From: Chloroflexota bacterium
Lineage (GTDB): Bacteria > Chloroflexota > Dehalococcoidia > CAUJGQ01
Length of the DNA: 37,536 nt
Direction of reading: 5' to 3'
Assembly (NCBI GenBank): GCA_963170165.1
Contig: CAUJGQ010000138.1
Location: 159,690 to 197,225 of the forward strand
Part shown: positions 33,085 through 37,536 of the stretch, piece after piece
Numbering within the stretch: position 1 is the first letter of the stretch
How the letters are laid out: the number at the start of each line of letters is the position of its first letter
The notes under the pieces: generated by a model
Told to the model about the DNA's origin: nothing
What the model saw: only the letters and a program-made list of their open reading frames with translations
Databases searched by the model: none
Translations under genes and position numbers: made by a program

Positions 33085-33266
33085 GAGGGCAGTCGCTAGG
33101 ACGGCCCGCGTACCGTCCGGAAGGACGGGGAAGCGTGGGGGGCCCCGCCGGTGGGAGGGATGCCCAGCGACGCGCGTAACTCACCCGGCGTAGGAGTCAA
33201 GCTACCGGACCCCGCAGCAACGGCGCAGATCGATCAGCAGCACACCGGACAGCGCTCGGCGGCGGT

Positions 33267-33433
33267 GCGGGGTAGCCGGCGCCGGCCACAAGGCGGCAGG
33301 TTATTCGCGCGTCCGCGTGGCGTGGTCGATTCGTTCGTGCACGACCGTGGCCAGCACGACTGCCGCCGCGCCGCCGTCATCTTCCTCCGGCCGGAAGGCA
33401 GCGGTGGTGACGTCGGCGAAGAGCGCGCCGATG
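33267..33433 (-). repeat. Direct repeat, copy 1 (matches 35840-36006)
   Basis: A 167-base stretch that is nearly identical to 35840-36006 with no indels. It encodes the last 44 residues or so and the stop of the secreted protein at 35874, plus 34 bases after its stop. At 33433-33435 it joins RHS core sequence abruptly. This is a recombination junction. Confidence 0.8.
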
Positions 33434-33579
33434 ACGTGCGCCGCCAGCGGCGTCGAGGGACAGTCCCCCGCCGGGTCCGGGCTAAGGAACCGGCCGGTGG
33501 CCGGGTCGTACAGGCGCGCCCGCAGGTAGAGCAGCCCGCTCTCCGCGTCGCGGCGGTTGCCGGTGTCGTCAAACGGCAT
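33301..33579 (-). pseudogene. RHS core remnant fused in frame to the tail of a secreted protein
   Basis: A 92-codon frame from ATG 33579 begins in the RHS core (MPFDDTGNRRDAESGLLYL, RARLYDPATGRFLSPDP), then leaves it after PLAAH and continues in frame as the C-terminal tail of the 35874-36551 protein (ADVTTAAFRPEEDDGG, then HERIDHATRTRE). It lacks the RHS cleavage motif and any tip, so it cannot act as an RHS toxin. The same frame runs upstream through the IS630 remnant. It is a fossil chimera made by recombination. Confidence 0.75.
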
Positions 33580-33876: not shown

Positions 33877-34104
33877 TCAGTAACGTCTCAGCAGAAGTAG
33901 TACTACAGCATTGGCAATAGACCATATCACTACTGAGATTACGAAACGCAGTGCGACATCTGATGAGCCAACGGAAGATAGTATTACACTTGCGGGCATG
34001 ATGTCTGTTCCAGTTACGTGGAAGACAACTATCTCGATCAGCGAAATGAATAGTGAAAGACTTAGCGATATGATGATAGTCTGTTTGAAAGTTATCGGCT
34101 TCAT
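33877..34104 (-). CDS. Candidate membrane immunity protein, two TM helices
   Basis: 75 residues from ATG 34104. An in-frame GTG at 34134, two bases after the TAG of the RHS module (34136-34138), is an alternative start that adds 10 polar residues. Neither start has a clear ribosome site. Hydrophobic segments at about 8-32 (TIIISLSLSLFISLIEIVV) and 52-72 predict two transmembrane helices. It has no known family. The local composition is much richer in AT than the core genome. A small gene placed directly behind a polymorphic toxin tip usually encodes its immunity protein, and a membrane protein fits a membrane-active tip. Confidence 0.6.
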   Translation of the reverse strand: MKPITFKQTIIISLSLSLFISLIEIVVFHVTGTDIMPASVILSSVGSSDVALRFVISVVIWSIANAVVLLLLRRY

Positions 34105-34135: not shown

Positions 34136-35056
34136 CTAGTGGAAACCTGCTCCACCACCTCCGCCTCCGCTCGGTGGGCCAGGTGCATCGTTGCCAGATT
34201 CTAGTCTGCTGCATACTGCATCACATCCATTTCGGCCTCCGTAAGCAGATAATGCGCCGCAGATAACGTCAACCGTTCCTGCACAAGCCAGTCCAGGGAT
34301 TGTCCATGCTAGACTGAGTATCGGGCCGATGCAAACAGCCCAACCTATATCGACACATGTGTGCGATGCGCCCAACCCGTACACAATCCCGCAGAGTTGT
34401 CTGCAACCGATCTTCGGGAACCAACTCCAGGGTGAGTTGTGCGTCCATACGAACTGGTCATAGTTCGGGATGTATTTCGCGCCAAGCCCGAGATCCATGA
34501 TGGGGTGGATGCACAGCCCCGGGTCATTCGCCGAGCAAATGCCGTCGTCCAGCGCTGGCTGCGTGTCGACATCTGGGACGGGCGGCTTGCCAATTCCTTG
34601 ATAGGGCTGCGCACCCGGATAGTCGCCGGGCATGGTGCTGGGCGCCGGCCCGTCCCACGCCGAGAGTCCGAGCGGGTCGGTGTAGCGTGCCGGGTTGGCG
34701 AGGCCGTAGAGGTACGCGTGCGCCGTCAGCGGGGTTGACGGGCAGTCCCTCGCCGGGTCCGGGCTGAGAAACCGGCCGGTGGCCGGGTCGTACAGCCGTG
34801 CCCGCAGGTAGAGCAGCCCGCTCTCCGCGTCGCGGCGGTTGCCGGTGTAGTCAAACGGCATGCTCGTGCCGGTCTGTGTGTGGATGTTGCCATACGCGTC
34901 GTACTCCCGGCTGCCGATGGCGCTGCCTGTGCTGCTCAGCACCAGCCGTTCGCTCCCCTGGCGGTCGGCCGCCACCACCCAGCGGGTACTGGGTGACCAG
35001 CTCCCCCGCCCACACGTACTCGCTGGCCCCGTCTCAATCACACTACTGCTCGCCAT
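34136..35056 (-). CDS. Orphan RHS module with cysteine-patterned toxin tip
   Basis: The frame from ATG 35056 gives 306 residues, but only those after about residue 24 (RWVVAADRQGSERLVL) are RHS. It has the RHS core (REYDAYGN, YDPATGRFLSPDP), the self-cleavage motif PARYTDPLGL and a pre-tip segment shared with the copy at the window edge. A hydrophobic tip (residues 217-282) has eight Cys spaced 3-11-7-15-7-11-3, with TIPGLACAGTVDVIC resembling halocin C8-like domains. A Gly tail ends it. The large N-terminal RHS shell is missing, and one extra base near 34984-34986 breaks the frame to the upstream EYVWAGELVTQY. It is a displaced module that would become active by recombination. Confidence 0.75.
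   Translation of the reverse strand: MASSSVIETGPASTCGRGSWSPSTRWVVAADRQGSERLVLSSTGSAIGSREYDAYGNIHTQTGTSMPFDYTGNRRDAESGLLYLRARLYDPATGRFLSPDPARDCPSTPLTAHAYLYGLANPARYTDPLGLSAWDGPAPSTMPGDYPGAQPYQGIGKPPVPDVDTQPALDDGICSANDPGLCIHPIMDLGLGAKYIPNYDQFVWTHNSPWSWFPKIGCRQLCGIVYGLGASHTCVDIGWAVCIGPILSLAWTIPGLACAGTVDVICGALSAYGGRNGCDAVCSRLESGNDAPGPPSGGGGGGAGFH
34416..34798 (-). repeat. RHS pre-tip/core homology, copy B (matches 37154-37536)
   Basis: About 383 bases collinear with 37154-37536 (offset 2738) without indels, covering RHS core, PARYTDPLGL and the pre-tip segment up to WSWFPK. Similarity stops abruptly at the first tip cysteine. The pattern is typical of polymorphic toxins that swap tips at a conserved border. 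Confidence 0.8.
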
Positions 35057-35357
35057 CTCGGGTCGACCTAATATGGGGGAGCAACCAGAACAGCGCTACC
35101 GCAATACCGGCCGCACCCATAACAATGGTGATAATCGCATCCCAGACTGTGAATCCAGATTCTCGCAGAGCGCGGCCAACTACGACGGTACCAGTGAACC
35201 CTAGGGCTATTCCTAGGAATGTCGTTAGCTGTCTCCTCTGGGAATGGCCAGCCCAGTGCTGTAGTCTGCCCTTTACGGGCCTTGTGTCCCGAAACAGCGT
35301 AATGAGGATGATCATCGCGACAGGAACCATGAATGCGAAGATGCCGGTGACCATCAT
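35043..35357 (-). CDS. Small membrane protein, candidate displaced immunity gene
   Basis: 104 residues from ATG 35357 (the next codon is also ATG), with GGGA about 9 bases upstream; a longer frame to 35399 is possible. Three hydrophobic segments (MVTGIFAFMVPVAMIILITL, LTTFLGIALGFTGTVVV, DAIITIVMGAAGIAVALFWL) predict three transmembrane helices. No family is recognised. Its stop overlaps the start of the RHS module that follows on the same strand, so RHS sequence begins exactly where this gene ends. That placement suggests an immunity gene left behind when its own tip was lost or replaced. Confidence 0.55.
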   Translation of the reverse strand: MMVTGIFAFMVPVAMIILITLFRDTRPVKGRLQHWAGHSQRRQLTTFLGIALGFTGTVVVGRALRESGFTVWDAIITIVMGAAGIAVALFWLLPHIRSTRDGEQ

Positions 35358-35399
35358 ATAGTTTCCCGTTTGGGCGAACGCCGCTTCCGTCCGAGACAC

Positions 35400-35839
35400 C
35401 CAGGTATACGAGCTATCGGCAGATTAGCGCCCCTTCGCAGACTTGCTTGGCGGATGGTGAGGGAAGAGCAGCCACTGACCTCAGCATAGATTACTGACCA
35501 TAGCCGCAGCGGCAGAAACCGGCCGTGGTGGAGATCTCTGCCTTGGCGGTCTTCGATGTGCATGCCGGCAGGCGCGTCCTCACCCGCGGTGCGGCCCTCG
35601 CCCGCCGGGCGCAGCTTGCCCCCGCGCCCTAAACCGGCATCCGAACAGGGGCCTGCACAGTCTGGCGAGGGGTACGGGCGCAGCTCGCGCGTATGGGATG
35701 CACCACCTGAGAGAGCACACCTGTCTCCGCTCGGGCGCGCCGTGCGCTGCGGGTGTGCGGGGGGCGAGCAACGGGCGCGCGCGCGGGCAGCCCCCCTGTG
35801 GTGCGGGTATGCCTCCGAGGGCACACACCCGGCGGTCGT
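35400..35839. other. Gene-free stretch between RHS-linked genes
   Basis: I see no convincing gene here. The stretch holds a short alternating CG run (about 35774-35787) and GC-rich simple sequence. A long open frame on the minus strand (35354-36115) is a shadow of the flanking genes and has no recognisable content. Confidence 0.5.
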
Positions 35840-36006
35840 GCGGGGTAACCGGCGCCGGCCGGAAGGCGGCTGGTTATTCGCGCGTCCGCGTGGCGTGGTC
35901 GATTCGTTCGTGCACGACCGTGGCCAGCGCCACTGCCGCCGCGCCGCCGTCATCTTCCTCCGGCCGGAAGGCAGCGGTGGTGACGTCGGCATAGAGCGCG
36001 CCGATG
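35840..36006 (-). repeat. Direct repeat, copy 2 (matches 33267-33433)
   Basis: This is the original context of the repeat: the end of the secreted-protein gene and 34 bases downstream. The copy at 33267 is fused to an RHS core. The two copies are 2,573 bases apart in the same orientation, so recombination between them could delete the RHS modules in between. Confidence 0.8.
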
Positions 36007-36551
36007 TGGAACCGGTACCAGTAATGCACCACGTCACGCCCGTCTTCGCGGCCGGTGAGGCGCATGAGCGCCCCCTCATCCCCGAGTGTGGGGGCATCGA
36101 GTGGCTCTGCCGCAACGTAGTAGCTGGCGCCGTACGTCATCACCAGGTCGGGCATGCCGGCCACAGCGGCCGCCGCGCCGGCGGTATCTTGATAGCGGTC
36201 GATGGAGGCGGCGACGCCACTGGGATACCCATCGGCTGCCGGCACGCGCAGAAAGAGGATGTGATAGCCGTCTATCCGGCCCCAGGCATCGAACTGCTGC
36301 TGAACCGCCGCCGGGTCATCGGAGCGAGCAGCGAGGCTGGCGTTGTCCAGCACCTCCCCGCCATCGCTGATGAAGCCAGGGAGCAGATCGGTCTCGGTAA
36401 GTGAAAGCTGCCAGAGGGCATCACCTTCGCTTGGTTGGGCTGCCATTCCTCTTGTCAGGCCACTGCCTATCAGCACAAGCATCACACCGATGAGCGTGAC
36501 TGTCGTAAATACGAACCGTGTAGCCTGCGTGCGATTATGAAAGCGCAGCAT
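35874..36551 (-). CDS. Secreted or membrane-anchored protein, unknown function
   Basis: 225 residues from ATG 36551, with GGGAGG about 5 bases upstream; the frame extends to 36572 without support. An N-terminal signal or anchor (FVFTTVTLIGVMLVLIGSGL) is followed by a domain with LPGFISDGGEVLDN, QQQFDAWGRIDGYHILF and LGDEGALMRLTGREDG. The pattern resembles extracytoplasmic proteins of Chloroflexota with no named function. It ends in ADVTTAAFRPEEDDGG and a terminal HERIDHATRTRE, also found fused to RHS at 33301. It stands between two RHS modules and may be part of the RHS locus. Confidence 0.7.
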   Translation of the reverse strand: MLRFHNRTQATRFVFTTVTLIGVMLVLIGSGLTRGMAAQPSEGDALWQLSLTETDLLPGFISDGGEVLDNASLAARSDDPAAVQQQFDAWGRIDGYHILFLRVPAADGYPSGVAASIDRYQDTAGAAAAVAGMPDLVMTYGASYYVAAEPLDAPTLGDEGALMRLTGREDGRDVVHYWYRFHIGALYADVTTAAFRPEEDDGGAAAVALATVVHERIDHATRTRE

Positions 36552-36669
36552 TGAACCTCCCGCTCTTGTCACGCTGGGCGAACAAGGCTGATGGTGTTAT
36601 CATTTCAATAGATGTCGATCCGAGGCGGCTGCTATTTTCGACGTCATCCACCGTTTCCTTTTCTTATTT

Positions 36670-36873
36670 GTGTCGATAGCCTTTATTGTGCTGTCCATTA
36701 TTTGGGTTGCTTCCTTGTATTTTGGGTTGTACGGTGGCCTGAGTCTTGGGAACCTCTCCGACGATTGGCGCCGGTGGTGGGTGCAGCTCTTCCCGTTGCT
36801 TACGTTTATCGTGTTATTGCTAGCTGTATTCTTGTTCTCCGCGATTAGATCTGGATTTATGCCTTCATTCTGA
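36670..36873 (+). CDS. Possible two-helix membrane protein opposite to the RHS array
   Basis: Plus-strand frame with a GTG at 36670 and no ribosome site. The open frame continues upstream as SEAAAIFDVIHRFLFLF without ATG, GTG or TTG, so a one-base indel after an ATG at 36612 is possible. The protein has two hydrophobic helices (VLSIIWVASLYFGLYGG and LLTFIVLLLAVFLFSAI) around a polar WRRWW loop. The minus-strand frame through the same bases is Lys/Asn-rich and less protein-like. It lies in the AT-rich stretch right after an RHS tip, so it could be a broken immunity gene. Confidence 0.35.
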   Translation: MSIAFIVLSIIWVASLYFGLYGGLSLGNLSDDWRRWWVQLFPLLTFIVLLLAVFLFSAIRSGFMPSF

Positions 36874-36939: not shown

Positions 36940-37536
36940 CTAGTGCAATAGTCTTTGCATGGTATACGCATTGCATTGGCGCAGATGCGTCCCCCAGTAA
37001 AACCCGCAAGTTGCAGCGCATGCGGCAGCCGCAATTGGGTTTGCCGTTATAGTTCCACAGACAATGGCGCAGGAAGCGTTCAATGGTACACCTGCCACAA
37101 AACATAGGCCGCTGGAGCAGACAGCATTGCAGATAGTCTTACAGCCGGCTTTAGGAATCCAACTCCAGGGCGAATAGCGCGTCCATACGAACTGGTCGTA
37201 GTTGTGAATGTATTTCGCGCCGAGCCTAAGATCCATGATGGTTTGGAGGCACAGCCCCGGTTCATTCGCCGAGCAAATGCCGTCGTCAAGCGCTGGCTGC
37301 GTGTCGATGTCGGGGGCGGGTGGCTTGCCAACACCGAGGTAGGGCTGTGCGCCCGGGTAGTCGCCCGGCGTGGTGCTGGGCGCCGGCCCGTCCCACGCCG
37401 AGAGTCCGAGCGGGTCGGTGTAGCGCGCGGGGTTGGCTAGGCCGTACAGGTAGGCATGCGCGCTCAGCGGCGTCGAGGGACAGTCCCCCGCCGGGTCCGG
37501 GCTGAGAAACCGGCCCGTGGCCGGGTCGTACAGCCG
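36940..37536 (-). CDS. RHS protein C-terminus with cysteine-rich tip, 5' part outside the window
   Basis: 198 visible residues, open to the window edge. They begin in the RHS core (RLYDPATGRFLSPDP), pass the cleavage motif PARYTDPLGL and a pre-tip segment shared with the module at 34136 (PALDDGICSAN, GAKYIHNYDQFVWT), then enter a different tip. The tip has nine Cys spaced 3-3-4-10-3-12-3-10, with several CxxxC pairs such as CAIVC and CAATC, and hydrophobic Ala/Ile/Val stretches. CxxxC pairs place Cys on one helix face, suggesting disulfide-linked helices. The frame ends at TAG 36940. The downstream sequence is AT-rich. If the N-terminal shell is intact outside the window, this could be the functional RHS gene. 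Confidence 0.75.
   Translation of the reverse strand, partial: RLYDPATGRFLSPDPAGDCPSTPLSAHAYLYGLANPARYTDPLGLSAWDGPAPSTTPGDYPGAQPYLGVGKPPAPDIDTQPALDDGICSANEPGLCLQTIMDLRLGAKYIHNYDQFVWTRYSPWSWIPKAGCKTICNAVCSSGLCFVAGVPLNASCAIVCGTITANPIAAAACAATCGFYWGTHLRQCNAYTMQRLLH
37154..37536 (-). repeat. RHS pre-tip/core homology, copy A
   Basis: Collinear with 34416-34798. The two copies differ by scattered substitutions, so they are not a very recent duplication. Confidence 0.8.

What the first reader, a model, noticed from the sequence alone, without database searches (positions are those of the whole stretch)
36973..37143. A second, different cysteine-patterned RHS tip at the window edge
The RHS copy entering from the edge has the same pre-tip segment but a tip with nine Cys spaced 3-3-4-10-3-12-3-10. 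Its core 10-3-12-3-10 is again mirror-like. CxxxC pairs (i, i+4) and the i, i+8 pairs of the first tip both put cysteines on one face of a helix. Two unrelated-looking tips with the same design principle suggest a polymorphic family of disulfide-stapled helical toxins.
Basis: partly seen in the sequence, partly recalled or inferred. Interest (0 to 1): 0.8.

Follow-up and report, generated by a model that had tools for sequence, protein, structure and literature searches.

The report
Cysteine-rich toxin tip on RHS protein
At the broken end of an assembly contig, an RHS protein (a bacterial weapon with swappable toxin ends) carries a short, oily, nine-cysteine tip. A second RHS fragment nearby has the same lead-in but a different cysteine-rich tip that resembles an archaeal antimicrobial peptide, so this looks like a known weapon design with an unclassified warhead.

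Summary
The open RHS frame entering at the window edge (37536..36940, minus strand) ends in nine cysteines at exactly 36973-37143, spaced 3-3-4-10-3-12-3-10. The edge is a real contig end, so the RHS body is missing. A second RHS fragment (35056..34136) shares 136 aa at 85% identity. Homology stops exactly at the first tip cysteine, the signature of RHS tip exchange. A DPLGL self-cleavage motif precedes the shared linker.

Tip 1 (8 Cys) is probably halocin C8-like. It hits NCBIfam TIGR04449 sub-threshold over nearly the full model. Two halocin sequences score z 4.6-5.0 above shuffles that keep the cysteines fixed. Tip 2, the finding itself, matches no family and is not significantly similar to tip 1 or halocin C8.

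The mirror spacing is weak for tip 2 (1.6% by chance; 19% if its own gaps are permuted). The "one helix face" idea fits tip 2 but not tip 1. No genome searched outside this one has the shared lead-in, so conserved spacing across a family is untestable here.

Most likely tip 2 is a disulfide-stabilised, membrane-active bacteriocin-like RHS tip. A 2-TM immunity protein is plausible but unproven. This is a new variant of a known kind, of moderate-low interest.

The parts
36940..37536 (-). C-terminal 198 aa of an RHS protein cut off by the contig end; carries tip 2
   Evidence: translation; TIGR03696 Rhs_assc_core 37 bits, cut-off 32.5; contig ends here
37402..37536 (-). End of the RHS core, finishing in DPLGL (self-cleavage motif); the released C-terminal fragment would start after it
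   Evidence: sequence; DPLGL named as the aspartyl-protease motif in Rhs1 (PMC8636562)
37147..37401 (-). Linker and pre-tip shared with RHS fragment 1 (DYPGAQPY...PALDDGICSAN...QFVWT..SPWSW.PK)
   Evidence: 80% aa identity to 34394-34660 over 89 columns; not found in 293 other genomes of the class except one weak in-frame-stop hit
36973..37143 (-). Tip 2: nine-cysteine segment, spacing 3-3-4-10-3-12-3-10
36670..36873 (+). Candidate immunity gene for tip 2: 67-aa protein with two strongly hydrophobic segments, convergent with the RHS gene; GTG start, tentative
   Evidence: no family match
34136..35056 (-). RHS fragment 1: RHS core, same linker and pre-tip, tip 1; lacks the RHS body
34211..34405 (-). 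Tip 1: eight cysteines 3-11-7-15-7-11-3, halocin C8-like
   Evidence: TIGR04449 E=0.0029, positions 3-65 of 69, 18.6 bits under the cut-off of 24; halocin alignment against Cys-fixed shuffles z 4.6-5.0
33877..34104 (-). Candidate immunity gene for tip 1: 75-aa protein with two hydrophobic segments, same strand, directly downstream
35043..35399 (-). 118-aa multi-pass membrane protein between the cassettes; possibly immunity of a lost cassette
33301..33579 (-). Third RHS core remnant, fused to a duplicated C-terminus of the 232-aa protein; no tip

Best explanation
Tip 2 is the C-terminal toxin domain of an RHS polymorphic toxin. Shown: RHS core ending in DPLGL, a linker shared with a second copy, and a sharp sequence switch at the first tip cysteine. 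Inferred: the RHS shell delivers the chain and cuts after DPLGL, releasing a fragment of about 153 aa. Once in an oxidising envelope its small, Ala/Gly-rich, hydrophobic end is stapled by disulfides into a compact, probably helical hairpin that inserts in or disturbs the target membrane, as Tse5-CT does and as halocin-type peptides may. A small two-TM membrane protein next to it would give self-protection. Tip 1 is a halocin C8-like version on the same carrier, and the locus looks like an array of exchanged or displaced RHS tip cassettes.
For: RHS core above cut-off. DPLGL motif in the sequence matches the Rhs1 cleavage motif (PMC8636562). Exact breakpoint at the tip. Three RHS core pieces in 4 kb. 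Foreign-looking tip: GC 0.53 against 0.68 in the core. Hydrophobic tip with TM-like stretches and GRAVY 0.59; small two-hydrophobic-segment ORFs beside both tips. Halocin C8 loci on haloarchaeal plasmids also have a 68-aa hydrophobic protein directly downstream. halocin_C8_dom is reported as a C-terminal toxin extension of PAAR proteins (PMC8651086). The RHS protein Tse5 delivers a pore-forming C-terminal fragment of similar size (PMC10684867).
Against: No family hit for tip 2 in NCBIfam, Pfam, or solved structures, and only a chance-level PHROGs hit. No significant similarity to halocin C8 or tip 1. No usable structure model. RHS shell and secretion parts missing from the assembly. The immunity candidate for tip 2 is on the opposite strand and lacks an ATG. 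Only one instance of the tip exists in the data searched.
Confidence: 0.5

Rival explanations
1. Tip 2 is a highly diverged halocin C8-like domain, homologous to tip 1, with cysteine spacing shifted by whole helical turns.
For: Shared GCxxxC start and similar central C-x12-C loop with proline; weakly raised alignment scores, z 1.2-1.9.
Against: Not significant: 331-770 of 6000 Cys-fixed shuffles score as high; tip 1 against tip 2 z 0.76; no TIGR04449 hit.
Confidence: 0.25
2. Tip 2 is an enzymatic or metal-binding toxin domain; the cysteines are zinc ligands or a catalytic Cys rather than disulfides.
For: CxxxC pairs can bind metal; most RHS tips known are enzymes (PMC3482391).
Against: No His or acidic catalytic pattern stands out, the tip is only about 66 aa and hydrophobic, no family match.
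Confidence: 0.12
3. The tip is a decaying or displaced, unexpressed cassette whose cysteine pattern is incidental to a TGY-rich stretch of DNA.
For: The neighbouring RHS copies are fragments, no YD repeats anywhere in the assembly, and another frame is also Cys-rich.
Against: The frame is open through the tip with no stop, the shared part shows excess third-position change, and the missing body may only be an assembly break at a repeat.
Confidence: 0.18

Closest known systems
RHS polymorphic toxins with exchanged C-terminal tips (Rhs1, RhsA, Tse5)
   Same: RHS-associated core, DPLGL cleavage motif, conserved core followed by variable tip, multiple tip-bearing fragments at one locus
   Different: Shell and N-terminus not seen because the contig ends; tip domain belongs to no catalogued toxin family
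Halocin C8-like domain (NCBIfam TIGR04449), found as a C-terminal toxin of PAAR proteins
   Same: Tip 1 aligns over positions 3-65 of 69 with Cys and non-Cys similarity; tip 2 shares small size, hydrophobicity and high Cys content
   Different: Tip 2 does not hit the model and its spacing (CxxxC pairs) differs from the 2-7-3-7-13-7-7-8-6 of halocin C8; tip 1 stays under the curated cut-off
Tse5-CT, pore-forming RHS toxin
   Same: Non-enzymatic-looking hydrophobic RHS tip, fragment about 150 aa
   Different: The paper's text does not mention cysteine or disulfide; no sequence relation shown
Tox-WTIP (two-TM predicted pore-forming tips; PMC3482391)
   Same: Small hydrophobic tip of RHS and PVC toxins
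   Different: Needs RxxR and Wx[ST]IP; tip 2 has neither, tip 1 has WTIP without the spacer and no RxxR
Twin CX3C helical hairpins (small Tim proteins, plant alpha-hairpinins; from general knowledge)
   Same: CxxxC-x12-CxxxC spacing in the centre of tip 2
   Different: Spacing resemblance only, recalled and not tested; no homology

Membership tests
RHS polymorphic toxin | RHS-associated core domain (TIGR03696) above cut-off | tested here: met
   37 bits against 32.5, truncated by the contig end; copy 1 74.3 bits
RHS polymorphic toxin | DPxGL self-cleavage motif at the core end | tested here: met
   DPLGL at residues 41-45; motif in PMC8636562
RHS polymorphic toxin | Variable tip after a conserved core | tested here: met
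   85% shared, then 21% aa identity at the tip; other class members share only the core
RHS polymorphic toxin | YD-repeat shell and secretion N-terminus | tested here: inconclusive
   No YD repeats in the assembly; contig ends inside the gene
RHS polymorphic toxin | Cognate immunity gene beside the tip | tested here: inconclusive
   Two-hydrophobic-segment ORFs beside both tips, no family match, tip 2 candidate on the opposite strand
Halocin C8-like domain (TIGR04449), tip 2 | Score above the curated cut-off | tested here: not met
   No hit; Cys-fixed shuffle test not significant
Halocin C8-like domain (TIGR04449), tip 1 | Score above the curated cut-off | tested here: not met
   18.6 bits against 24, E=0.0029, nearly full-length
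Halocin C8-like domain (TIGR04449), tip 1 | Sequence similarity beyond cysteines | tested here: met
   Against halC8 and Haloferax lucentense 2/6000 and 1/6000 Cys-fixed shuffles, 34/6000 and 7/6000 with hydrophobic pattern fixed; but not against Halobacterium salinarum
Disulfide-stapled helical hairpin | Helical arms with Cys on facing sides, disulfides formed | tested here: inconclusive
   Cys on one face for tip 2 but not tip 1; AF2 pLDDT about 40; disulfides not testable

The most novel reading that the evidence does not exclude
The RHS carrier swaps a whole series of disulfide-rich, membrane-active peptide warheads behind a fixed GCxxxC lead-in, keeping a cysteine scaffold while sequences diverge, much as venoms do; tip 2 would be the first of a new bacterial disulfide-hairpin toxin family.
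Probability: 0.13. Interest if true: 0.6.

Novelty: new variant of a known kind. Interest (0 to 1): 0.34.

Why it matters
Most RHS tips described are enzymes; non-enzymatic membrane-acting tips are few. If tip 2 is a disulfide-stabilised membrane toxin, it adds a warhead type to RHS proteins, and tip 1 extends halocin C8-like domains, known from haloarchaea and PAAR proteins, to an RHS carrier in what is probably a Chloroflexota genome (taxon inferred, not shown). With one genome and two tips, it is a lead rather than a family.

Tried and rejected
Genome-contig scan with the whole RHS fragment: no relative. Viral contigs with tip 2 and tip 1, plasmids and phages with tip proteins: no relative. 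Class-wide HMM search with tip 2: only the window itself is real; the weak hits checked are antisense or composition matches. TIGR04449 in 294 class genomes, 400 phylum genomes and 320 genomes of another order (that of a Pseudorhodoferax locus): none above cut-off, so halocin-like domains are rare there. AlphaFold2 single-sequence models unusable, and Foldseek on one gave nothing, as expected. A fourth RHS core hit on contig C130 proved spurious. One home-made halocin HMM gave tip 1 8.0 bits, with 14/3000 Cys-fixed shuffles as high, and tip 2 -2.5.

Full report
What is there. The minus-strand frame 37536..36940 is the last 198 aa of an RHS protein. The window edge is the end of contig C138 in a 213-contig assembly, so the rest of the gene is unseen. 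No YD-repeat match exists anywhere in the assembly, and RHS-core matches above cut-off lie only in this 4-kb stretch. The core matches TIGR03696 above cut-off and ends in DPLGL, the aspartyl-protease motif described for Rhs1 (PMC8636562).

The tip. Nine in 57 residues is far above the local rate of 0.94% (P about 3e-9). A second frame of the same DNA is also TGY-rich, but it contains a stop, so base composition contributes. Tip GC is 0.53 against 0.68 for the core, which fits acquired DNA.

The second copy. RHS fragment 1 (35056..34136) shares 136 aa at 85% identity, with 39 of 59 nucleotide differences in third positions. Identity then falls to 21% (aa) and 35% (nt). The 300-nt repeat ends at 37142/34404, inside the first tip Cys codon. 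That is the pattern expected of tip replacement in RHS proteins. A third core remnant at 33301-33579 is fused to a duplicated end of a neighbouring 232-aa gene.

What tip 1 is. Tip 1 aligns to the halocin C8 domain model over positions 3-65 of 69 at E=0.0029 (domain alone), 18.6 bits under a cut-off of 24. With the hydrophobic pattern also fixed, 34 and 7 of 6000 reach them. A Halobacterium salinarum homologue gives no signal. I call tip 1 probably halocin C8-like, not a proven member. The domain has been reported as a C-terminal toxin almost exclusively on PAAR proteins (PMC8651086).

What tip 2 is. No library gave a hit above chance. Its scores against halocins and tip 1 are not significant (z 0.8-1.9). 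Its core mirror arises by chance in 1.6% of random placements, or 19% when its own gaps are permuted; tip 1's full mirror is much rarer. On a helical wheel the Cys of each tip 2 arm cluster (R=0.91), but those of tip 1 do not (R=0.09). Structure prediction failed for lack of homologues.

Is it a family? The pre-tip occurs only in these two copies among 294 genomes of the class and was not found by the genome-contig scan. RHS proteins elsewhere in the class share only the core and carry unrelated, mostly Cys-poor tips. The prediction therefore stays open.

Mechanism. Most likely a released C-terminal fragment of about 153 aa acts at the target envelope, with its hydrophobic Cys-rich end held by disulfides. 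The precedent for an RHS protein delivering a membrane-acting fragment is Tse5, whose C-terminal fragment forms pores (PMC10684867). Small proteins with two hydrophobic segments flank both tips, and halocin C8-like genes on haloarchaeal plasmids have a small hydrophobic protein directly downstream, which suggests membrane immunity. For tip 2 that candidate lies on the opposite strand and is tentative. Delivery, cleavage, disulfides, membrane action and immunity are all inferred.

Verdict. Real feature, correct coordinates, partly correct interpretation. It is a new variant of a known kind.

Noticed in passing
window 33257-33433 and 35830-36006: 177-nt direct repeat, 94% identical: the C-terminus of the 232-aa secreted-looking protein (35874-36572 minus) is duplicated and fused to an RHS core remnant, so the locus has rearranged by recombination between repeats.
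   Followed up: partly
window 34980-35056: RHS fragment 1 seems frameshifted just upstream of WVVAADRQ: another frame reads GASEYVWAGELVTQYP, typical of RHS. Seen by eye only.
   Followed up: no
window 36670-36873 (+): Two-hydrophobic-segment small ORF convergent with the RHS gene; the minus-strand 103-aa ORF over it looks like its antisense shadow.
   Followed up: partly
L070:2804-3010, L071:2799-3005: Haloarchaeal halocin C8-like genes on plasmids are followed by a conserved 68-aa hydrophobic protein annotated hypothetical; it may be an accessory immunity protein.
   Followed up: no
L249:478-1503: A Chloroflexi MAG contig encodes a repetitive Cys-rich protein (CVSxCPAGQCCxxGAC repeats) found by the spacing scan; unrelated to the tip.
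   Followed up: no
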